Assembly (NCBI GenBank): GCA_036925085.1
Contig: JAUPFP010000018.1
Coordinates: 1,751,001-1,815,000 of the forward strand
Reading direction: 5' to 3'
Length of the DNA: 64,000 nucleotides
Source of the DNA: Brachycybe producta
Lineage: Eukaryota > Arthropoda > Diplopoda > Playtdesmida > Andrognathidae
This document shows positions 14,301 through 50,735 of this stretch, in pieces; the first letter of the stretch is position 1, and every line of letters begins with the position of its first letter. The notes below the pieces were generated by a model. That model was not told the DNA's origin, made no database searches, and was given only the letters and a program-made list of their open reading frames with translations. Both the position numbers and the translations under genes were made by a program.

Positions 14301-17300
14301 TCGAATTTTAAATATATCCAAGGGCCATACCATATGATGTTTATTGTAACGAATATAATTTTTTATATTTCGCTTTATGAACAAAATTTAGTTAAGCCTA
14401 AGTTGTTTGGTTTAAACGATCGTTTTCGTTTAGATTTTTTTTGATGGGGCGCACCGGGAAGTTCCTCATTTCCCTGTGGGTCAGTCCTGGCCTGCCAGAA
14501 AAGCATTGTGAAAATAACCCGTTAACATGTGCAAGAAAACTTCTCCCATACAAATGTAAATTTAGTTGAAAAGCAGTAAAATGGCACCCATATAAATCTT
14601 CTAAAATATACATTTCTCCATTATCAACATCCGTTGGAAATAAATTCCATAGTCTAATAATCTTAGATACAAATGACCAAAAATACAAATGTGTTCTTAG
14701 GCCGGCCATAGACGTAACATTTATTCTGTGCAATATAAAATGCACATGTTTACCACACAGGTCCAAGAGACTTCTGGATCCACTAAACAATACATGAATA
14801 TCGCTGCAAGTTTAGCTCAGTTGTGTGGAGAAGCAGGAGAACTGAATGAAGATTTCACAAATCCTCCTACACGCTCCGGTATGCAGCTAGACTTTGGCAG
14901 TTTTTCCACCTAAACATTCAAGTATGCTTGCGACAATAGACATGTGTATTTAATAAATTAATAATGCACCGTTAAACGTTACGTATAGGGCCGCCCTTAC
15001 TATAAACTGCTTCTTCGCACAACGTAACAACAATTGGCTTAAGACAAGACCTGAACAGCATGCATTTCTTTCAGATTACTGATGCTGGTTCAAATATAAG
15101 CCCTACGAACTGCTAACAATATCCCAACTCAAGTTCTGAAAGCCACAGCAAAAGCTGCACACTTTCAGTGAAAACAATGAATTCAACTTACAGTCTTCAG
15201 CTTGCTTCATCAGATTGCCTCGTATCGTACGAGCAGACTCGAACTGACGACAACGATCCAACAGCTTCTTATGCAACCAATCGTATGACGGAGAATTCAG
15301 ATTTCTGTTATAGAAATAAGAACGAAGAAATCAACAACACATTAAAAGAGTTTACTTTTTATTAAGTGTGATGGTGCAACTTTTTCTTTTTGGGGGTTTC
15401 TGCAATCGCCATCATATTTGATATATTGCACTCATAAACATATACAAAGTGTCTCAAAAACCAACGCCAAAATCTATTATAAAAAGTATAAGTTACATCG
15501 TTTTAAATTAAATATCTCAGAAATTATAAAATGCTACATATTACGAACTTCGGTGTAACGCTAGGAAAATATAAAAATGTTGGTGTAAAGACAAAAGTCT
15601 GTAAAAACAAAAATTAAAGTCAACATTCTTTTTAAATTCATTGATTTTTTTAAAAAAAAATTAAATTAAATAGTAATTCATTTCACTATTAGAATATATT
15701 TTGATACTAGTGGGGTAACCCGTCATAAATGACGGGAGCATAATTCACTGGCAATTGTGCGCATGCGCGTCGGTTTTTCCTTTTTTTTACTCCTTTCATT
15801 TCAATTTCAAGTCACCCCCTCCCACTTTTCTCTCTCTCTCTCCCCCTTCTACACTTTCCAACCTTTTCCCCTCACCCCCTCCCACTTTTCTCTCTCTCTC
15901 CCCCCCCTTCTACACTTTCCAAAGGAAGAGTTCAACATATAGTTGACCTTGAGAAAAAAAAACGGTTCATTTATTCAAATTTATATAAATTCCGACGTGC
16001 TTCAAGGGTTCTGTACAGTTGTTACTCCACACACACATACATACATACATACACAGACCTGGGATATTATATATATATAATAAATAACATTGTTAAGAAA
16101 TACATTAACCGCCGTATTCAAAAACGTTGCATAAACTAAAAGTCAAACCTTGACGCAATACAAAAACTCTTATATTAAGTCTATGGAGAGTTTTTAAGTT
16201 TAGATTTGTTGGAGTTTCACCGTAATTCACGGCCATAAGTTTCAAATGCATAGTTTTTATTCTTTCTAAAGCCCCTATCACACTAGCAACTTTTTAATGC
16301 AATTCAACTTGTAATGTGACTTGCAACTAGAACTTACACATCAAACTAGTTTTACAACCTAGTTCCAATCAATTTTTCAAAACTTATTTTGTGTCCACGT
16401 TGTGGAAGTTCATAAACCGGTAGTCATGAAACCGGAAATTCATTCAAGGTTTTGATGTCGTCACTATGGGCCTACAAGCCTGATTGGTTGTTTGTGAGAA
16501 AGTTTATAAAAAGTCTCTCAGAAGTTGAACATATGCAACTCAATGAGACTGAGTCTCACCACTAGTTGAAAAGAAAGGTTTATCAAGTTGCATGGCACAG
16601 TGCAAGTTTTATTGCATCAAAGTTCCATCAAAAATTGCTAGTCTGATAGCAATAAAAATCTCGTCTATGAACGCTCTTAGTGTTCACAAACGAGACTTTT
16701 AGTGGTCCAGATGAACTGCAAAATGTGGTCGGCGTTTGGATGTAACTAACAACTGGAGTCGACTTTATACAACCACTTTTTGCAGGTTCATCCTACTACA
16801 TTTGGACTAATTTCTAAGTCAAAGTCAACTTGAGTCGTCGATTCGGCCACACGCCGACCTCTAAGGCTCTTTTTGCAGTCCCATTTGCTACTAAAAGTAG
16901 CTCACAGATGCAAAAAAGTTGGCCTAAGTCGCCAGATGTTTTCAGAAACATGAAATATACAAATATCCTTTGTGGACACAGTGTTTCTTTTGTTGCTAAA
17001 GTAACAAAAGAAACACTGTGTCCACAAAGAATAAACATGTTGTTGTCAAAAAGCGACCCAATACAACTAGTTGCTTCATGTCTCTCAAACCTTGTGAATA
17101 AAGTCATGCGTCAACAAGTGGAGACTTCGTATTTGAAGCCCGTTGAAGATTAAAATATTTCCACTTGTTACATCCGTGTGGACAACGATTAAGATATTCA
17201 ACTTTAAACAACTTTGATTATAGACTGGAGCGATGGTTTCTGTGACATATACCGTATATAGTGTCGTTACTTACTCTTGTCTGGCACAGAATTTACAGAT

Positions 17301-32383: not shown

Positions 32384-32604
32384 ATGATGATAGCCTCTTA
32401 CTATTCATCATCATCATTTCCTGTACCTTATCCCGCAAGCAGCAGGGTCGGCCTTGCTGGTTCTAACTCTCCACTCGTTCCGATTTTGCACCAAGCCCCC
32501 AGTGACCCCACATGCCACCATATCCCATTTTACTACCACATCCCAGGTTTGCTTGGGTCTTCCTCTACCCCGTTTTATTTGATATGATGATAGCCTCTTA
32601 CTAT
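32384..32604. repeat. Retroelement tail flanked by a 22-bp repeat
   Basis: 'atgatgatagcctcttacta' occurs at both 32,384 and 32,583. Between lies GC-richer text that on the minus strand ends 'gcgggataaggtacaggaaa' plus ATG repeats, like a LINE tail. The second copy of the 22-mer directly abuts the Helitron-like element, and the duplication may be a target-site duplication of the insertion. Confidence 0.5.
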
Positions 32605-32950
32605 TATATATATAATATCCCAGGTCTGTGTGTGTGTGTGTGTGTAGTAACAAAACCATTGAAGCACGTCGGAATTTATATAAATTTGAATAAATGAACC
32701 GTTTTTTTCTCTCAAGGTCAGCTATATGTTGAACTCTTTCTTTGGAAAGTGTAGAAGGGGGGAGAGAGAGAAAAGTGGGAGGGGGTGAGGGGAAAAGGTT
32801 GGAAAGTGTAGAAGGGGAGAGCGAGAGAGAAAAGTGGGAGGGGGTGACTGAAATTGAAATGAAAGGAGTAAAAAAAGAAAAAAACGACGCGCATGCGCAC
32901 AATTGCCTGTGAATTTTGCTCCCGTCATTTATGACGGGTTACCCCACTAG
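32602..32950 (+). mobile_element. Non-autonomous Helitron-like element (full)
   Basis: 3' end: hairpin CCCGTCA-TTTA-TGACGGG (32,921-32,938), then TTACCCCACTAG and host T. It has a (TG)n run near the 5' end ('caggtctgtgtgtgtg') and two tandem purine-rich blocks (the complement of the pyrimidine blocks at 15.8 kb). It is nearly the same as 15,707-16,082. Confidence 0.72.
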
Positions 32951-42737: not shown

Positions 42738-42941
42738 TTAATTAAAATAATTATTTATAAGCAGATGACAATTAATATTAGAGATTTGTGAGCTTTTGAC
42801 ATCAACCAATATTTTATTACCAACCTTTAGATGACATTTTCTACTTTTCGTTTCTTCTCTGAGCAGTATGACACCTGCACAGAGAAGATCCGAGCTGTAG
42901 AGAGAGCTGGATGGAGACAGATTGTAGTCACTCTTCTGCAT
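42738..42941 (-). other. Open frame of 67 codons next to the LTR element
   Basis: Starts MQKSDYNLSPSSSLYSSDLL and ends 15 bp from the 3' LTR of the retrotransposon. Donor-like sites GCAG/gtgtca and AAAG/gttggt lie inside. Ser-rich and not recognised. It could be an exon of a gene cut by the insertion, or chance. Confidence 0.2.
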
Positions 42942-42955
42942 GGGGGTGTAATCGA

Positions 42956-43472
42956 TGCAGGAGAGTGGCGGCCATCTCTCTCTTCCGGTTGATGCTGATA
43001 TACATCTTCTCCATCGGTATTCCGACTAGAGAAGATGTTGTAGCTGCTGAGAATCGTATAGCTCCTGCCCTATGAAACCTCCGGCCTCTGAAGAGAAGTT
43101 GTTAACATAAAGACATAGAGACAACGCTACTTCTTGTTACAACACTTTTATTCATTCCTTGTAAGAAGTACAGATACAAGGGTGAATAGTAAAATACTAA
43201 CTGGAAATCCTCAGGCCCATGATTTGGAATGTATCGCAAAAACAGGCAAAGGAAAGAACTGAGGAACAAAGAGGAACATGGTCCTTTTATACCTTGGACC
43301 TGTGTACACCTGCGAGGTGTAACCAGGTCCAAGTGACCATGGTCCTTTACGTATCAATCCGCCGCTTGGGCATTAGTCAGAAAGGTGAGTCAGAGAGGAG
43401 GGAGGGACGGTTGAGAGTTGTTTACCCCCCAGGCTATGGTTTTGGCGGGATCACGATTTACAGGGTGTTACA
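42956..43472 (-). repeat. 3' LTR, 517 bp
   Basis: In element orientation it starts TGTAACACCCTGTAAATCG and ends CTCTCCTGCA. A TATA box (TATAAAAGG, near 43,284) and a polyadenylation signal (AATAAAAG, 43,145-43,152) are present. It is the same as the 5' LTR. Confidence 0.92.
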
Positions 43473-43486
43473 TACCCTCCAACTTT
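43473..43486 (-). other. Possible polypurine tract
   Basis: In element orientation AAGTTGGAGGGTA directly precedes the TG of the 3' LTR. It is purine-rich but short. A hairpin, ggagtacg-tcct-cgtactcc at 43,490-43,509, lies just before it. Confidence 0.4.
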
Positions 43487-43876
43487 GCTTGGAGTACGTC
43501 CTCGTACTCCAGCCAAGGGTGGAAGGTTTTCAAGTTACGCAGCGGGGAGACATGGGTGGCTGAGGACTTACCGTGTACAGAGGTGGTTATGGAAAGGCAC
43601 TGGCACTGAAGTGTCAGCGCCCTTAAAAATTGGAAAAGGCTGAAAACATAAAACAAAGATAATTAATGCTCGCTGAGTGGCGAGCCGCTATTGAAATCTA
43701 AAAAGAAAAGAACAGTTGCAACGTATTTTATTTTTTATAAATTTTTCGATAATGCCACCCGGATGGGTGGCAACCACATGAGTACATGTGGCGCGCAGCA
43801 AATCCCTGCTGCGGAGGGTGGGGAGGATCCTGGGTCCATGAACCGTACGGGGGGGGTAATCCCGCCGGACCTGGCC
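43487..43876 (-). other. 3' non-coding part of the LTR element
   Basis: About 390 bp between the novel ORF stop and the polypurine region. On the element strand a strong donor-like site ACACG/gtaagtcc lies near 43,571. No further ORF. Confidence 0.45.
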
Positions 43877-45676
43877 TCATCGGTAGCTGGATGCGGCAGA
43901 CAGCCATTGTCCCTGGTCGTCAGGTAGATCCCGGTGGAAGATATTGAAGATGTCCCGGTCCCCGATAATCTTACGGGAGGACCGCTTGTTGTACAGTGTA
44001 GCCCAAGCGGCGTCCCATAAGACGGCGATTCGGTAGCGAGGATCCGGTTCCGGAATGTAGTGACGACTGGTACGGAACGTCTGTCCAGCTGGCAGTCTAA
44101 AGACGGAGTTGACGAAAGCTCCCAAAAGGGCTTCCGTGGCTTCATCGATGGCATCTCCGGCGAAACTGGTGGTTTCAACAATCCGTCTTCTTGGGAAGAC
44201 GATGGTGATGAGGACACTTGTTAGGCGGGAGAGTCCCACGACATATCGCTCCCGGGGAGGGAGGTCCAGACGGGGAAACCCTTCCTCCAAAGAGAAGTGT
44301 CCTACGTAAAGGGTGTTGGCAGAGCGCACTTCGCGCTGCCAAGTGACCCACCGATTGTTGAGCAACCTCTCGCCGGAGGTGGCTGCACGGAACGGATGAT
44401 CCAGCGGTAACCGCCCCAGAGTAGCCCCGGCATGGGGTACAGTGGGCGGTGCGGCTGGTCGGGCTGGTGTTGGAGCCGCAGGTTCCAAAGAAACTGATGC
44501 GCCCGTGATAGGCCTGGCATGGCGCAAGGCGGACCGGGCCATATCGCGGGCCCGCTGACGTAGTCGCTTCGATGCTGACCTCCTGCTCAGCGCCTCCAGT
44601 GGCTTGGCACTTCCTGGTGCACGGCCCAGTGCTTCCATGGGGTCACCTCCCTGTCGCATGACGTCTTGCAGAAGGTTTGTGATGGCCTTCTGTTTTTTCA
44701 AGAACGCGGCACGCTCTGCGGAAGGTGGCGGCATCAAAGGTGTAGGCGTAGGTTGTCCAGAAGGGCGGCCCGGAGGTGGCGGAGGAGGAGAGCGACGCGG
44801 GACCCGAGTAGGAGGGCCCCGAGTTTCATAGCGATGGTCGCGGTCCAGTTGGACTCGGTGATCCTGTAGATCTTGCCTGACCCTTGGGTCGAAGTTATTA
44901 CGCGGCGGAGGGCCGCGTCCAGAGGAACCACGTTGTTCCTGCTGACTTCTTCCGTCGGGTCGGCGTCGGGGCGAAAGATGGGAACCACGTGGCGAAGAGC
45001 GACGTGGTTGTGGCCGTTGAAGAGAGTCTCGAGAAGAGTGGTGGCCCCTGTAGGACTGTTGAGGCTCCTTGGGGCGAGCCCCAGTGGGAACCTGAACACG
45101 AACAGGTTGGGGAACCACCACTATGGAAGGTAGCTTTGGAGTCGGAGTTGGTGTGGCGGCCTCGCTGCGTGGAGGCGTGGCACATCGGGAGGTTGGTGGT
45201 GACGATAATGGTGTATGAGGAGGAGGTGGCGGAGTGATTGACGGCACCGGGGAGCAGTGTTGGAAAGGCTCTGGTGGTGTTATGGGTGGAGAAGGAGATG
45301 TAGAGAGGCCAGTTGTCAGGGTTGCTGGCGAGTTTGAGGATGGAGATGATGACGTAGCTGACGACGTAACTCGGGCGGCTTCTTGGAGTCGGGCCTCGAT
45401 TCGCAGGAGCTCCTCCTTCGGGAGTTGCGCCGTACACGGTAAGCCCAGCTCGACAAGGCGGGCGCAAACCGCACGGAGGTACGCCAGATTGTCCTCCCCT
45501 TCCTTCTTATCTCTGGCTGCCCGACGAAGAGCAGCCTCCCTCTGCAGCTCCAAGTGGAGGTCTTCGAGGGGGGAGGGCACAGATCCACCTCCCCCACGCT
45601 TCCCTCTTGCTTCAGCTCCACCCGGAATGGGTTGACCAGGCGCGATGCTATCGCGGAATGCCTGGTTAACCCCCAT
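43877..45676 (-). CDS. Novel 599-codon ORF in pol position
   Basis: Unrecognised protein. Residues about 37-102 form a likely coiled coil (LEDLHLELQREAALRRAARD...). Residues 103-320 are Pro/Ser/Thr/Arg-rich and disordered (SPSPPITPPEPF, RRSPPPPPPGRP). Residues 320-390 are basic and helical (RSASKRLRQRARDMARSALR). Residues 430-599 look folded, with hydrophobic strands and helices (RYVVGLSRLTSVLITIVF; IDEATEALLGAFVNSVF; YRIAVLWDAAWATLYN). No RT, RNase H, integrase, envelope signal peptide or membrane segment. The ATG has a strong context (G at -3 and +4). Frame integrity over 1.8 kb in a recent element argues that it is a real gene. Possible roles: second structural protein, RNA-packaging factor or captured host gene. 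None is shown. Confidence 0.72.
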   Translation of the reverse strand: MGVNQAFRDSIAPGQPIPGGAEARGKRGGGGSVPSPLEDLHLELQREAALRRAARDKKEGEDNLAYLRAVCARLVELGLPCTAQLPKEELLRIEARLQEAARVTSSATSSSPSSNSPATLTTGLSTSPSPPITPPEPFQHCSPVPSITPPPPPHTPLSSPPTSRCATPPRSEAATPTPTPKLPSIVVVPQPVRVQVPTGARPKEPQQSYRGHHSSRDSLQRPQPRRSSPRGSHLSPRRRPDGRSQQEQRGSSGRGPPPRNNFDPRVRQDLQDHRVQLDRDHRYETRGPPTRVPRRSPPPPPPGRPSGQPTPTPLMPPPSAERAAFLKKQKAITNLLQDVMRQGGDPMEALGRAPGSAKPLEALSRRSASKRLRQRARDMARSALRHARPITGASVSLEPAAPTPARPAAPPTVPHAGATLGRLPLDHPFRAATSGERLLNNRWVTWQREVRSANTLYVGHFSLEEGFPRLDLPPRERYVVGLSRLTSVLITIVFPRRRIVETTSFAGDAIDEATEALLGAFVNSVFRLPAGQTFRTSRHYIPEPDPRYRIAVLWDAAWATLYNKRSSRKIIGDRDIFNIFHRDLPDDQGQWLSAASSYR

Positions 45677-46116
45677 GCCATGAGGTTGATATCGATGCGG
45701 TCTTCCCGCTCCTCCCAGTAGTGTTTTGATGTCGTGACGTCGAAGGGGACGATGCTGCTTGGAGCAGCAGGCTTCCCTTCGCGCCCGACATTGGCAGGTC
45801 GCTTGAAGCTTGCTTTTAGGCGCTTCTCCCCACGCCGGTGAAAATTCTCCGGTTCGGAGGAGGTGCGGCGCCTATCTATTATGTTTGGCGACTCTCTTCT
45901 TGTTGTGGGCGCACTGGCGGCGCCCGCCTTTTGTAGCTGGCAGGTAGATTGAGAGAGGGGTTCAGCGGTCCCCGCCGTTCCACTCTCCGTCTCATCTTCA
46001 CTGGAAGAGGCAGACATCATTCTGCCTCCTCTCCATGAGCCTCTACCTGGCATATTTCTTAAGAGTTTAAAAGTTCTTACTTTTTCAAAAGTCCCGCTGC
46101 TGGTGATTACTTCCAA
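45316..46116 (-). CDS. Novel ORF unit, upstream frame
   Basis: 266-codon frame. The part before about 45,676 looks coding: an Arg/Gly/Ser start (MPGRGSWRGGRMMSASSSED at an internal Met), then RRTSSEPENFHRRGEKRLKA, then SKHYWEEREDRIDINLMAWG. After that point the overlapping frame (next entry) takes over and this one becomes poor. The switch falls at GCATGGGGGTTAACC, where a -1 slip on the G5 run joins the frames. Alternatively the second frame starts from its own ATG there. No known domain; basic and disordered, possibly RNA-binding. Confidence 0.6.
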   Translation of the reverse strand: MEVITSSGTFEKVRTFKLLRNMPGRGSWRGGRMMSASSSEDETESGTAGTAEPLSQSTCQLQKAGAASAPTTRRESPNIIDRRRTSSEPENFHRRGEKRLKASFKRPANVGREGKPAAPSSIVPFDVTTSKHYWEEREDRIDINLMAWGLTRHSAIASRLVNPFRVELKQEGSVGEVDLCPPPSKTSTWSCRGRLLFVGQPEIRRKGRTIWRTSVRFAPALSSWAYRVRRNSRRRSSCESRPDSKKPPELRRQLRHHLHPQTRQQP

Positions 46117-47049
46117 ATAATAACAGAAATCGGTCCCCGATCACTCTGTTATTATTTCAAGAGGTCCAAAAAGTTCTGAAGGTCTGATGCACTGCACGTG
46201 AGTTCAAAGGCTTGAAGGTGGCACTCAAGCTTTTGATTGACAACAAAAACTGATGAAGTCCGAAATTAGAATTTGGAACTTGGCACAAAAAGGACTTGAA
46301 GATTTGAAGAATCGAAGGTGAATATAATTGAGATGACAGGATGAATAAAACGAGTGCTTCTTTTTTTTTTTTATTTGTTTATGGCCAGCAGTTTTTGTTG
46401 TTTGTTGTTTTTTTTTTTCTTTGAAGTCCCAGTGCATTGGTCTGGCCCCCAGAGCAATTGTCTCTTTGAAGTTTTCTATCCCTCTACTGTCAACAGCATG
46501 GTCAATGACGTCCGTCCATAATAAAGGGGAGCACGGTGTTTTTCCTTTTGCTGACCCTTTTATGGCTCTTGATTTTTCTTCTGAACGTCCTTGACTGGCC
46601 TTCGGCGTTTTTCTCAGGTGCACCACGTGGTTGACAGTTGTTTGTGAAGGCCACGTGGTTCCGGTGTAGTTTATTGCATGTTTGAAATGGTTGCCAATAT
46701 GTAAATATTGGCGGCCATGTTGAAAAGTTTAGAAGTGTTTCAAAAATTAAAGTTGTGTGAATTTTGTAGAGTTTTGGGAGTTATTTGAGAGTGTTTAGAG
46801 GGGTTGTTGATGCTGTGGGGTTGTTTATTCGTTGGGGGGTTCCTTTTATCCCCTCCCCCACCTCTTGACAACTGTCCTCAGTTGTTTCTTAACACAACAA
46901 TTCCTCAAATTCCTCCCGCTCTTCTATTGTTGATATTTGATGGTTGCTGGTGTTTATTTCCATAGTCATGAAATAAACACTGGTGAATTATTGTTTTATT
47001 TTCGTCGCGTTTGGTTTCTTGACAGCGTGGGTGGCCGTAGCTTTCGTCG
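46117..47049 (-). other. Spacer between gag-pro and novel ORF unit
   Basis: Has T-runs (46,360-46,425) and a 133-codon frame at 46,225-46,626 that is Lys-rich and looks fortuitous. This is where reverse transcriptase would normally begin; no RT remnant was recognised. Confidence 0.5.
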
Positions 47050-49248
47050 TCACTTACGGGGTGGAGTTTCGAGGTTTTCCCTAGAGGTGCTGGCAGATTT
47101 GCCAGGGGCCTCTACGGAAGTTTCTCCCAGAGCCCATCCGATGTGTGCTTCGATGCATTTCTGTCGGAGTGTGGACTCGAAGAGGTCGTCCTCCACGTAT
47201 ACTTTGTTTGTTGTCATGGACACAGCTAAGTGCAGAGCCCGGCCTAGATCTCGGCCTAAGATGGCTTCGTGCCGGCCGGTAATCACTAGTAAGTGCCCTC
47301 GCACAGCGTGGGGGCCCAGCTGGACCGTCGCGGCGAGTCGCCCCACCACGGTGATCCGTTGGCCTCCCACACCCTGAATGTTGGGTGGGATTAACACAGG
47401 CTCGATTTCGAACTTGTGTTCCTGCGCGAGTTCAATGGTGATAACGCTGCCCGTAGCTCCGGTGTCCGCGAGCATTCGTATACACTTTCCGTTGATCGTG
47501 ACGGCGATGCGTGGGTTCTTGTCGCTGGCATCGTAGTCTCCGACTTCTTGAGGTGAACAGCTGCTTACCAGCTGCTCATACACCGTTGTCATTAGTCTTC
47601 GGCAGCAGGAGTGGCCCTTCGTCGGCGATTGGGTTCCGGGAGCCATGATGGCTATTGTTTTATTTTCGCGGCACCCAATCTCCTTGGTGGATTGTTTAAG
47701 GACGTCGAGCGTGTCCTGCCAAACGATTAGCTCGTCCGGGGTCCATTTATTTGCAGGAGCCCGGTCGAGCACTTTGACTGGTATGTCCTCAGAGTCGTCA
47801 GAGCTGTCGTTGTCGGGTTTGTCAGGAGTAGGTGCTCCGGCGGCTGAGTCTGCTGCTGGGAGAGGAATCCGGCGGATTTGTCCCGCCACTCGTATCAGAG
47901 CAAACTCAATGCCGTCTTCGGTGATGATATCCGTTTCAGGCACCTCTCCTTTGATATCATAGTCGGTAACCGGCTCCCCAAACTGCTTGATTGCAACCTT
48001 CTTCTTGGGTTGCCGACACTCACGGACGAAATGCCCCAGTTTGCCACAATTATAACACGTCGACTTACTCTTGTCGAACGTGCGAGTGGTCTCTGGTTGG
48101 GGGTCCGCTGCGGAGTGTCGGTTTGAATTGGTGGCAGCAGTCTGACTAGGCTTCTTATCGTGCCTAGACCGGTGTGTTTTGTCTTTAGGGCTGGCGGCTG
48201 CCGCCGGCTCCTGGTCGGTCTTCGATGCTCCTTTACCCGACTGTGAATCAGCTGCGGGTTTTGGTTCCGTCGGCCATTTATCCAAGGACAGCAAGACCAC
48301 CTCCATATTGAGGACGGCGTTTGCGAAGTCCTTGAACGATGTCGTAGATGCGTGATGCGTGGCGTTCTGTATGGTGGGATGTAGAGCGCGGCGCAACTGG
48401 CTTATACGCAGCTGATCGTCAAGTTGCGGGTAAACTCGGTCGCCGAGTATCATAAACTCCCAGATGAAAGCTTGTGTACTCTCACCTTCCTTCTGGAGCA
48501 TTTCTGTGTACTTTTTCTCCAAGATGGCCAGTTCGTTCGGCTTCCCGAACGTATCTACCATCTGTACTCTCAGTGCTGGCCAAGGAATGTCCTGAAGCTC
48601 ATACCTCAGTTTACTCAGCCACGTACGGGCGGCCCCAGTGAAACACCCCGTGATGTATTCCTCCTTGTGGTGGTCTTTCCAACCGTACAGGTGTGCCACT
48701 TCCTCGAATTCTTCCAGGAAGGGACGGAAACCTGTCAATCCGTTGAATTTTTGGATTGAGTCGGCAGGGTGGCGACCGCTGTATTTCTTATTGAACTCTT
48801 CCACGGAGGGTTCTCTGGGGGTTGGTCGATAGATGCCATCCTGGACGTTTGGCATTCCAGCCGGCATCAGACCTACCCCTTGCGGTGGAAAACGTGGCGC
48901 GTAAACTGAAGTGCCTTGTGTCGCTCCTTGGTGAGGCTGTTGTTCCGGGGGTGTCGAGCGGCGACCGCTACGTGCAACCCGGACAAGCGAGTGAGGAGAA
49001 TCAGCACGTGTCGTAATCGGTATTTCCGCACGCTCATCTCTGTGACGCGGATCATCTGACTGCCCTTGTTGCCAGTCAGGATTACGCGGTAGATGACGTG
49101 TGTGCGGTGTGTAATGTCTTTCGTAACGATCGTGACGCTCTCTGTAGCCAACATAGGGGGCTGAAGAGGCGTCCGAGTCATCGTCGCGAAGTCGGTGTGC
49201 GTGTTGTCCGCCGTGGTGTAGTCGGTCGATTCGGTGTGAATCGGTCGT
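47050..49248 (-). CDS. gag-pro: Gag-protease polyprotein (Ty3/Gypsy type)
   Basis: The frame is open from 49,248; the first good ATG in it is at 48,867 and gives 605 codons. The 127 codons upstream of that ATG also look coding (charged, with Tyr/Arg repeats). Counted from the ATG: a capsid-like Retrotrans_gag region at about 27-200 (YGWKDHHKEEYITGCFTGAA, then RTWLSKL); a basic/Ser linker; a CCHC zinc knuckle CYNCGKLGHFVREC at 271-284; and a retropepsin with LADTGATGSVI (catalytic Asp 468), a GVGGQ flap near 500 and AILGRDLG at 535-542. The product should assemble particles and cut itself. The stop at 47,050 follows the protease directly, so no pol is fused to it. Codon use is GC-rich, unlike the host exons. 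Confidence 0.9.
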   Translation of the reverse strand, partial: TTDSHRIDRLHHGGQHAHRLRDDDSDASSAPYVGYRERHDRYERHYTPHTRHLPRNPDWQQGQSDDPRHRDERAEIPITTRADSPHSLVRVARSGRRSTPPEQQPHQGATQGTSVYAPRFPPQGVGLMPAGMPNVQDGIYRPTPREPSVEEFNKKYSGRHPADSIQKFNGLTGFRPFLEEFEEVAHLYGWKDHHKEEYITGCFTGAARTWLSKLRYELQDIPWPALRVQMVDTFGKPNELAILEKKYTEMLQKEGESTQAFIWEFMILGDRVYPQLDDQLRISQLRRALHPTIQNATHHASTTSFKDFANAVLNMEVVLLSLDKWPTEPKPAADSQSGKGASKTDQEPAAAASPKDKTHRSRHDKKPSQTAATNSNRHSAADPQPETTRTFDKSKSTCYNCGKLGHFVRECRQPKKKVAIKQFGEPVTDYDIKGEVPETDIITEDGIEFALIRVAGQIRRIPLPAADSAAGAPTPDKPDNDSSDDSEDIPVKVLDRAPANKWTPDELIVWQDTLDVLKQSTKEIGCRENKTIAIMAPGTQSPTKGHSCCRRLMTTVYEQLVSSCSPQEVGDYDASDKNPRIAVTINGKCIRMLADTGATGSVITIELAQEHKFEIEPVLIPPNIQGVGGQRITVVGRLAATVQLGPHAVRGHLLVITGRHEAILGRDLGRALHLAVSMTTNKVYVEDDLFESTLRQKCIEAHIGWALGETSVEAPGKSASTSRENLETPPRK

Positions 49249-49426
49249 CTATGAACTGAGACATACGAGTCGAGAGTGCAGCCACTTGTTGTGACAGGTG
49301 GTCAAACTCGGCCCCAGTCGGCCGCGGCGGTGGTGTCACATCAGTAGTCACGGGTACTTCCAACAGATCTTCGTGTGAACCCTGGTGATCAGACAGGGAC
49401 CCCGTATTGTCGTGTGAGGCAGCCAT
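49178..49426 (-). CDS. Gag N-terminal open frame, 82 codons
   Basis: Starts MAASHDNTGSLSDHQGSHED, contains a proline patch and a short predicted coil (LSQQVAALSTRM), and stops after TPTSRR. The main Gag frame is shifted by +1 and opens just after a TAG at 49,249-49,251, so the two overlap by about 70 nt. This may be the true Gag start separated from the rest by a mutation, a programmed frameshift, or an upstream ORF. I cannot tell which. Confidence 0.6.
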   Translation of the reverse strand: MAASHDNTGSLSDHQGSHEDLLEVPVTTDVTPPPRPTGAEFDHLSQQVAALSTRMSQFIDDRFTPNRPTTPRRTTRTPTSRR

Positions 49427-50218
49427 GATTAATGATGTGGCTTGTGTAATGTGAATGTGCGGTGATGAACGAGTCCGGCGAAGTCCAAGTCGTTGTGTGC
49501 AGCTCCGAGGGTTCTCGAGTACACTCTGAGCTATACTTTCGGGTTCCAGTATGATGGGGCTCGTTCAGTTTGTAGGTCGGTGTTGTCACTGCGCGTTGGT
49601 AATTTAGTGCTTGTCGGCAACCGACACTATCGTACTCTTATACACTGAGTAACGATAGATTACCTAAGCTTGTGACGTGTATAACGAAGTGGCCGTTCAC
49701 TCCGTTAGTGTGGTGATGGTTGTATCGTGTTGATCGTGTTCTCAGTTGGGCGTGTGACGAGTTTTGGTTCCCAACTGGTGTAGCGTCGTGGATTCTCTAT
49801 TGAGTGTCAGATTTTAGAAGGATCTCTCTCGACACGTGGTATTTGGCGACCACGTGGAGATTACGAGAATTCCAAAAACCTCAATAAAGAAACAGCAGAT
49901 GTACAATACAACCTTGAGCGTGGTACCCCACCCAATCAAGATTGCACTGCGGAAAGTGAATTAGAAATGAAAGTGTATTGCAATTGCCTGAAGAAGAGGA
50001 AAGCAATACGAAGAGTAAAGCTAGAGCGCGGTGCCCGCACTTTTAGTTTTACTTGAAAACAAGAATGAAGAGTGTGTGTGTGTGAAGAACACACAAAGAA
50101 CAAAAAGTTCAAGATGGCTGAACTTTTTTAAATGCACAAACAAAGGAGAAGTTCAAGATGGCTGAACTTTTCCTGAAAGCAAGAGAAGAAAGCTGTTTTA
50201 CTTTGAAAGTTTAAAACA
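49427..50218 (-). other. Leader between 5' LTR and gag
   Basis: About 790 bp without a long frame. Directly after the LTR the element reads TGTTTTAAACTTTCAAAG. It lacks the TGG expected of a tRNA primer site, so priming is unclear. Confidence 0.5.
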
Positions 50219-50735
50219 TGCAGGAGAGTGGCGGCCATCTCTCTCTTCCGGTTGATGCTGATATACATCTTCTCCATCGGTATTCCGACTAGAGAAGATG
50301 TTGTAGCTGCTGAGAATCGTATAGCTCCTGCCCTATGAAACCTCCGGCCTCTGAAGAGAAGTTGTTAACATAAAGACATAGAGACAACGCTACTTCTTGT
50401 TACAACACTTTTATTCATTCCTTGTAAGAAGTACAGATACAAGGGTGAATAGTAAAATACTAACTGGAAATCCTCAGGCCCATGATTTGGAATGTATCGC
50501 AAAAACAGGCAAAGGAAAGAACTGAGGAACAAAGAGGAACATGGTCCTTTTATACCTTGGACCTGTGTACACCTGCGAGGTGTAACCAGGTCCAAGTGAC
50601 CATGGTCCTTTACGTATCAATCCGCCGCTTGGGCATTAGTCAGAAAGGTGAGTCAGAGAGGAGGGAGGGACGGTTGAGAGTTGTTTACCCCCCAGGCTAT
50701 GGTTTTGGCGGGATCACGATTTACAGGGTGTTACA
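50219..50735 (-). repeat. 5' LTR, 517 bp
   Basis: Same sequence as 42,956-43,472. The border was set where similarity to the 3' LTR stops and the TG...CA ends fit. Confidence 0.92.
50546..50556 (-). promoter_or_regulatory. Core promoter TATA box of 5' LTR
   Basis: Minus strand GGTATAAAAGG, about 185 bp into the LTR from its start. The AATAAAAG signal lies about 135 bp further downstream (50,408-50,415), in the usual U3-R order. Confidence 0.7.

What the first reader, a model, noticed from the sequence alone, without database searches (positions are those of the whole stretch)
42956..50735. Young LTR retrotransposon that has Gag and protease but no pol
Two apparently identical 517-bp LTRs enclose a complete Gag-protease but no reverse transcriptase, RNase H or integrase. 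Pol is replaced by an unrelated, long, intact ORF unit. Pol-less elements are known (LARDs, TR-GAGs, BARE-2-like), but one that keeps protease and carries a large extra gene in the pol position would be unusual and may be undescribed.
Basis: partly seen in the sequence, partly recalled or inferred. Interest (0 to 1): 0.88.

Follow-up and report, generated by a model that had tools for sequence, protein, structure and literature searches.

The report
Two-part retrotransposon: gag and pol split
The window holds a defective copy of one half of what looks like a two-part jumping gene: one half carries the particle-making gene, a separate half carries the copying enzymes, and because the two share the same ends they probably move only together.

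Summary
The element is real: LTRs identical over 517 of 517 bases; Gag and protease present, no RT/RNase H/integrase. This copy is defective: part of its 5' LTR, the primer site and 1.66 kb of leader are missing; gag and ORF2 are frame-broken. It is no one-off. The genome holds two multi-copy families with the same 686-688-bp LTR, tRNA-Ala primer site and leader: A (Gag-protease + ORF2, no pol) and B (protease-RT-RNase H-integrase + related ORF2, no recognisable Gag). Forty leader copies typed by short windows: 27 A, 13 B. LTRs and leaders of A and B intermix and group by age, not type, while coding parts are old and type-specific. Older copies keep the split; dN/dS is 0.15-0.28. Best reading: an obligately bipartite Ty3/gypsy-type retrotransposon whose RNAs share particles and recombine at their ends; an unseen Gag+Pol helper is not excluded. 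ORF2 ends in a CE-clan-like fold without catalytic cysteine. Gag-protease-only elements are known in wheat, with a Gag+Pol helper; my searches found no reciprocal split.

The parts
42787..43472 (-). 3' LTR, full length 686 bp (TGTAACACCC...GCTCACA in sense)
   Evidence: Homology to the LTR pairs of 10 other copies
43473..43480 (-). Short purine-rich tract directly before the 3' LTR (putative PPT)
   Evidence: Identical in 10 of 10 other copies; function inferred
43877..46053 (-). ORF2 (725 aa from its first Met in open copies); frame-broken once in this copy
   Evidence: open in 5 of 7 other A copies; dN/dS 0.28 against an old copy
43880..44401 (-). C-terminal domain of ORF2: CE-clan (Ulp1/SENP/adenain-like) fold predicted, no catalytic cysteine; about 38% identical to the domain of partner B
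47050..49426 (-). Gag-protease ORF; frame-broken once in this copy
   Evidence: open to the edge of the fetched piece in 6 of 7 other A copies
48379..48654 (-). Gag capsid region (Retrotrans_gag, PF03732)
   Evidence: E 1.3e-7
48010..48060 (-). CCHC zinc knuckle (PF00098)
   Evidence: E 4.9e-7; motif scan
47239..47523 (-). Retroviral-type aspartic protease (RVP)
   Evidence: E 1.5e-8; the pre-protease/protease stretch is 49.6% identical to that of partner B over 230 aa
49427..50217 (-). Remaining distal part of the leader; the proximal 1657 bp with the primer binding site is absent here
50219..50735 (-). 5' LTR, truncated: first 517 of 686 bp

Best explanation
The window element is a defective copy of family A, one of two halves of a two-part Ty3/gypsy-type LTR retrotransposon. 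A encodes Gag (capsid, zinc knuckle) and protease plus ORF2. B, elsewhere in the genome, encodes protease, RT, RNase H and integrase plus its own ORF2, and no recognisable Gag. SHOWN: both families have the same LTR, tRNA-Ala primer site and 5' leader; the copies read carry one half or the other; each half has young copies with open frames and 4-bp target-site duplications; the coding halves are old and under purifying selection; LTR and leader of A and B are mixed and follow age, not type; one older copy of each type (A', B') already has the split. INFERRED: Gag from A forms particles that package both RNAs through the shared leader; Pol from B is taken into them and copies and integrates both; template switching between co-packaged A and B RNAs keeps the ends alike; the Gag:Pol ratio is set by two transcripts (exact A and B sites stand at about 3:1) instead of a frameshift. 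ORF2 ends in a predicted protease-dead CE-clan fold, perhaps a ubiquitin/SUMO-binding module; its role is unknown.
For: Gene content: Pfam; tblastn: the B RT-integrase piece has 0 hits in 14 A pieces and in the window, and A Gag hits only the pre-protease/protease stretch of B. The CCHC motif of A Gag is absent from the six B pieces (one CCHC-like match in L011 lies in the leader and has a counterpart in the A piece L010). Shared ends: PBS exact in 9 of 10 copies, PPT 10 of 10, TSD 4 bp 10 of 10; PBS complementary over 18 nt to tRNA-Ala(AGC) with CCA. Census: 40 of 40 scored leader places typed by short windows as A (27) or B (13). Exact sites genome-wide: junction 528, A gag 358, B 114. First 100 junctions: 46 A, 11 B, 0 both, 43 neither pattern; 20 of those 43 sampled: 9 A-type, 5 B-type, 6 unassigned. 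RT places: 37 of 37 on contigs C1-C61 carry the B-specific pre-protease pattern within 4 kb (3 of the 40 lie beyond the listing). Mixed ends: 5' LTR identity A-B 99.3%, A-A 99.1%, B-B 99.7%; one A and one B leader round to 1.00 identity over columns 1200-2199, where two A copies have 0.96-0.99; A-B identity is 0.85-0.87 at 2.6 kb, 0.68-0.69 at 2.8 kb and 0.45-0.56 from 3.0 kb on. LTR tree: 8 A/B changes, shuffle mean 6.53; leader tree 6, mean 5.90. Age: A' (L110) and B' (L111) match their own type; dN/dS Gag-PR 0.22, A ORF2 0.28, B pol 0.22 and 0.15, B ORF2 0.24.
Against: No expression, particle or transposition data. Genome searches score only 40 places each; 23 of the 43 pattern-less junctions were not looked at, 6 of 20 stayed unassigned, and one of these (L093, mostly N, beside a tandem array of junctions) ends in a 24-residue pol-like match. 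Most census copies were typed by 400-600 bp windows, so the whole gene content was read only in 7 A and 3 B copies, the window, and most of A' and B'. A Gag+Pol helper with diverged ends is not excluded: the search for such relatives did not complete. The first roughly 300 residues of B Pol are of unknown function and could hold an unrecognised capsid. Three of 7 A copies (C5, C11, C20) lack the protease through a shared deletion. One young A copy (C20) has a strongly diverged leader.
Confidence: 0.7

Rival explanations
1. A is an ordinary semi-autonomous satellite (as wheat Sabrina, WHAM or Quinta) and B an independent gag-less satellite (as BARE-2); both are moved by an undetected autonomous Gag+Pol element.
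For: Such systems are described in wheat and barley (passages). Only the best 40 places per search were scored, and the search for Gag-Pol relatives in this genome did not complete. Related arachnid proteins P0032 and P0033 carry Gag and Pol domains together.
Against: No copy with both among the 10 read in full or, by exact patterns, among the first 100 LTR/leader junctions; all 40 leader copies type as A or B by short windows; the 14 older copies that could be typed are A- or B-type; Gag of A and Pol of B are each under purifying selection, unexpected for pure parasites.
Confidence: 0.18
2. B is autonomous: its Pol polyprotein begins with a capsid too diverged to be recognised, and A is a Gag-donating partner of it.
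For: About 300 residues of unknown function precede the B protease; they matched no Pfam family above cut-off, and their structure was not predicted.
Against: No zinc knuckle in the B pol pieces; no Gag profile hit, whereas A Gag is found by the same library; the stretch reads as Tyr/Pro/Arg-rich (inspection).
Confidence: 0.1
3. The window copy is a one-off deletion product of a normal element.
For: The window copy does carry deletions and frame breaks.
Against: Seven other A copies with perfect 4-bp TSDs and 0-3 LTR differences also lack pol, and 358 exact A gag sites exist genome-wide. The deletions of the window copy remove LTR/leader and spacer, not pol.
Confidence: 0.02

Closest known systems
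Wheat RLG_Sabrina_SA and RLG_WHAM ('semi-autonomous' Gypsy elements), partner RLG_Wilma
   Same: Gag and protease in one ORF without RT/INT; high copy number; co-evolution with a pol-bearing partner (PMC9744471, passages)
   Different: Wilma encodes Gag, RT and INT and is autonomous; here the pol-bearing partner has no recognisable Gag, and both partners carry a related ORF2
RLG_Cereba / RLG_Quinta of einkorn wheat
   Same: Pair with conserved LTR parts and PBS; Quinta encodes Gag plus a domain of unknown function; recombination between Quinta lineages inferred (PMC11302176, abstract and passages)
   Different: Cereba is autonomous; here neither member is complete, the LTRs of A and B are about 99% identical and their leaders 94% on average (73.5-99.6%), and the split is reciprocal
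BARE-2 (with BARE-1) of barley
   Same: Pol-bearing element that makes no Gag and whose RNA is packaged in particles of a partner (PMC3735527, passages)
   Different: [quoted passage not shown] B here has no recognisable gag region and A has no pol
Athila families of Arabidopsis
   Same: Pol-less Gag or Gag+Env elements under purifying selection, cooperation proposed (PMC2410132, passages)
   Different: The paper states that all pol-bearing Athilas also have gag
Gypsy-type Gag-Pol proteins of Cordylochernes scorpioides (P0032, P0033)
   Same: Pol 41-44% identical to B; Gag alignable to A at 19-22%
   Different: Gag and Pol domains lie in one protein

Membership tests
Ty3/gypsy-type LTR retrotransposons | RT - RNase H - integrase order with gypsy-type domains | tested here: met
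   Met by B only: in L012 RT 95-255, RNase H 343-447, H2C2 552-610, rve 627-721; best PDB match Ty3 Gag-Pol, E 1.1e-112
Ty3/gypsy-type LTR retrotransposons | LTRs with TG..CA ends, tRNA PBS, PPT, short TSD | tested here: met
   A and B: TGT..ACA, tRNA-Ala PBS, putative PPT, 4-bp TSD 10 of 10; the window copy lacks the PBS
Ty3/gypsy-type LTR retrotransposons | gag and pol in one element | tested here: not met
   A has no pol, B no recognisable gag
Semi-autonomous Gag-Pro elements (Sabrina_SA/WHAM type) | Gag and protease, no RT/IN, gag open in some copies | tested here: met
   Family A; 3 of 7 A copies have lost the protease
Semi-autonomous Gag-Pro elements (Sabrina_SA/WHAM type) | Autonomous partner with Gag, RT and IN sharing the ends | tested here: inconclusive
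   The partner found (B) has no recognisable Gag; no Gag+Pol copy among those typed, but searches score 40 places and most copies were typed by short windows
TR-GAG / LARD | Non-autonomous element with gag only, or a long non-coding interior (definition recalled) | tested here: not met
   A also encodes protease and ORF2; the protease-less A copies C5, C11 and C20 come nearer to TR-GAG
BARE-2-type gag-less elements | Pol-bearing element without Gag, sharing ends with an element that makes Gag | tested here: met
   Family B; its partner lacks pol, unlike BARE-1
CE-clan cysteine peptidases (ORF2 C-terminal domain) | Ulp1/adenain-like fold | tested here: met
   [not shown]
CE-clan cysteine peptidases (ORF2 C-terminal domain) | Catalytic cysteine | tested here: not met
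   No invariant Cys in the A/B alignments; no Cys at all in the 174-residue A row L009; none in the old copies at the stretch where it would be expected (position recalled)

The most novel reading that the evidence does not exclude
An obligately bipartite LTR retrotransposon: a retroelement with a segmented (multipartite) genome whose Gag and Pol halves have been separate, mutually dependent replicators through several generations of LTR turnover, held together by shared packaging ends and template switching, with no autonomous member. I know of no such case; the listings (open-licence PMC papers only; long listings seen in part) showed none.
Probability: 0.6. Interest if true: 0.92.

Novelty: new variant of a known kind. 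Interest (0 to 1): 0.83.

Why it matters
Retroelements are thought of as single self-contained genomes plus their parasites. A lasting reciprocal split would be a natural multipartite retroelement. It would show how mutual dependence can replace autonomy, offer another way to set the Gag:Pol ratio, and allow tests of how two RNAs are co-packaged. It also warns that annotation may file such halves as two unrelated 'defective' families.

Tried and rejected
Single deletion product: rejected (multi-copy family). Assembly artefact: rejected (perfect TSDs in 10 of 10 sampled copies on nine contigs). Shared LTR between neighbouring B and A elements at C17:4042200-4046000: rejected; two complete LTRs stand about 20 bp apart in an AT repeat. 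A significant match between the N-termini of B Pol and A Gag: not found (BLASTP at E 1 gave only the pre-protease/protease stretch). Relatives of the first 695 residues of B Pol or of the ORF2 domain in the protein collection: none at E 1e-3 among the 7994 candidates scored in each. Naming the host: not possible; the named proteins among the 120 best matches to B Pol come from a pseudoscorpion, ticks and spiders, with a fish and two frogs among them, at 36-49% identity, some over part of the query. Literature: searches returned no paper; some searches returned listings (20 of 69 shown, 12 of 50, 8 of 23) in which I saw no reciprocal split. Of five papers I saw passages (and one abstract), not whole texts; supplements were not read.
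Full report
1. What is in the window. The element lies on the minus strand. The two 517-bp repeats are identical, 517 of 517. Comparison with ten other copies shows that the true LTR has 686-688 bp: the left one, 42787-43472, is complete; the right one, 50219-50735, lacks its last 169 bp, and the 1657 bp of leader that follow it in other copies, with the primer binding site, are missing as well. Gag (Retrotrans_gag, CCHC) and an aspartic protease are found by Pfam. Gag-protease and ORF2 are each frame-broken in this copy, and about 0.5 kb of spacer near 46365, present in 7 of 7 other A copies, is absent. So this copy is young by its LTRs but defective.

2. A family, not an accident. LTR hits in the 295-Mb genome G000: 40 scored of 1667 first-look candidates. 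Ten copies were fetched in halves. All ten have 4-bp target-site duplications; their LTR pairs differ at 2, 0, 0, 3, 1, 0, 0 positions in seven A copies and 1, 0, 0 in three B copies. Nine of ten have an identical primer site, A_C32 differing at two positions; the common form matches 18 nt of tRNA-Ala(AGC) with CCA. One LTR hit is a solo LTR (L089).

3. Two kinds behind the same ends. Seven copies are of the window's kind (A): Gag and ORF2, with protease in four; no pol. Three are of another kind (B): protease, RT, RNase H, H2C2 and integrase in one frame, then a smaller ORF2, no recognisable Gag. The RT-integrase piece of B finds nothing in 14 A pieces or in the window, and A Gag finds only the pre-protease/protease stretch in B. 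Gag is open to the edge of the fetched piece in 6 of 7 A copies (broken in C28), ORF2 is open in 5 of 7 (broken in C32, C20); B pol is open in 2 of 3 (C10a has an early stop), B ORF2 in 2 of 3 (broken in C26). Three A copies (C5, C11, C20) share one deletion that removes the protease.

4. Census. The 40 scored leader places (of 779 first-look candidates): five were in hand, one was typed, 34 were typed by 401-bp windows: 27 A, 13 B, none other. These windows show Gag or B-specific sequence, not the whole gene content. Exact patterns over the whole genome: junction 528, A gag 358, B pre-protease 114, reversed controls 0; exact matching makes these lower bounds. Of the first 100 junctions listed, 46 have the A pattern downstream, 11 the B pattern, 0 both, 43 neither. 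I sampled 20 of these 43: 9 are A-type (L090 through its neighbour L112, L091, L094, L096, L098, L100, L104, L106, L107; L100 and L106 by ORF2 pieces only), 5 B-type (L092, L101, L102, L108, L109; L102 by ORF2 only), 6 unassigned (L093, L095, L097, L099, L103, L105). L093 is mostly N and ends in a 24-residue pol-like match (50% to B, 50-67% to other gypsy-type Pols); whose it is I cannot say. All 37 RT places on contigs up to C61 (of 40; three lie beyond the listing of the B pattern) carry the B pattern within 4 kb; none of the 37 has an A site within 7 kb on the same strand, as far as the A sites typed in go (exact sites on C1-C5 and the 40 gag places). One A gag place lies within 9 kb of an RT place; by coordinates it is C17:4046864, a separate insertion next to a B element.

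5. Ends follow age, genes follow type. Among the ten young copies 5' LTR identity is 99.1% A-A, 99.7% B-B and 99.3% A-B. Leader identity over the first 1600 bp is 90.2% A-A (71-99.1), 98.8% B-B and 94.2% A-B (73.5-99.6), the low values coming from C20. Along the alignment from the LTR start, A_C10b and B_C26 round to 1.00 over columns 1200-2199, where A_C10b and A_C32 are at 0.96-0.99; A-B identity is 0.85-0.87 at 2.6 kb, 0.68-0.69 at 2.8 kb and 0.45-0.56 from 3.0 kb on. A search with the diverged C20 leader found mosaic relatives at places that by coordinates belong to A and to B copies. With 13 older copies added to nine of the young ones (C5 left out), LTRs again group A and B together in each age class, for example oldA_7050112 with oldB_547264 and oldB_625545 at 89%, against 71-73% to the young ones. 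For the tree test two poorly aligned LTRs (L100, L106) and, in the leader tree, L092 and L107 were dropped, and L112 has no leader stretch. A/B labels change 8 times on the LTR tree (20 copies; shuffle mean 6.53) and 6 times on the leader tree (19 copies; mean 5.90), so labels are mixed as at random. In contrast protease (about 50% aa) and ORF2 domain (38%) separate A from B, and one old copy of each type matches its own type: A' (L110, 7.2 kb read) Gag-protease and A-type ORF2, no RT-integrase hit; B' (L111, 7.4 kb read, with about 1 kb of leader not read) pol and B-type ORF2, A Gag hitting only the pre-protease/protease stretch.

6. Selection. Young against old copy of the same type, NG86 on matched codons: Gag-protease dN/dS 0.22 (742 codons), A ORF2 0.28 (648), B pol 0.22 (566) and 0.15 (904), B ORF2 0.24 (360). 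The values include some neutral decay of the old copies, and dS is 0.8-1.4, so they are rough; third positions vary most in all five.

8. Mechanism and limits. The simplest account is a two-part retrotransposon (see best explanation). Co-packaging and supply in trans are inferred from shared and mixed ends. The main open point is an unseen Gag+Pol helper; the search meant to test for Gag-Pol relatives in the genome did not complete.

9. Known systems. Gag-protease elements without RT/INT exist in wheat, with an autonomous partner; Quinta/Cereba, BARE-2/BARE-1 and Athila are partial parallels, each with a Gag+Pol member. I saw abstracts or passages only, not whole papers.

Noticed in passing
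G000:C1:9695975-9703078: Six LTR/primer-site junctions 1413-1419 bp apart on one strand, about 3 kb from a stretch that reads N (L093): a tandem array of the element's 5' end.
   Followed up: no
L016, L022, L026 (copies C11, C5, C20): A copies that share one deletion of the protease region (window 47037-47729) with the same 9-bp spacing at the junction: a protease-less A subtype that has transposed.
   Followed up: partly
L025:895-2882: A diverged leader allele in a young A copy; pieces of it recur at many places, which by coordinates include leaders of A and of B copies.
   Followed up: partly
L134 (G000:C17:4042200-4046000): A B element and a second element of the family (A by the gag place) inserted about 20 bp apart in an AT repeat, same orientation.
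   Followed up: yes
L129 and around (G000:C13:203324-205394): Tandem array of tRNA-Ala genes, about 146 bp apart.
   Followed up: no
window 15744-16136 (+) and 32417-32938 (-): Two ORFs that share a repeat; the second ends in a stretch resembling the tail of a LINE (resemblance recalled).
   Followed up: no
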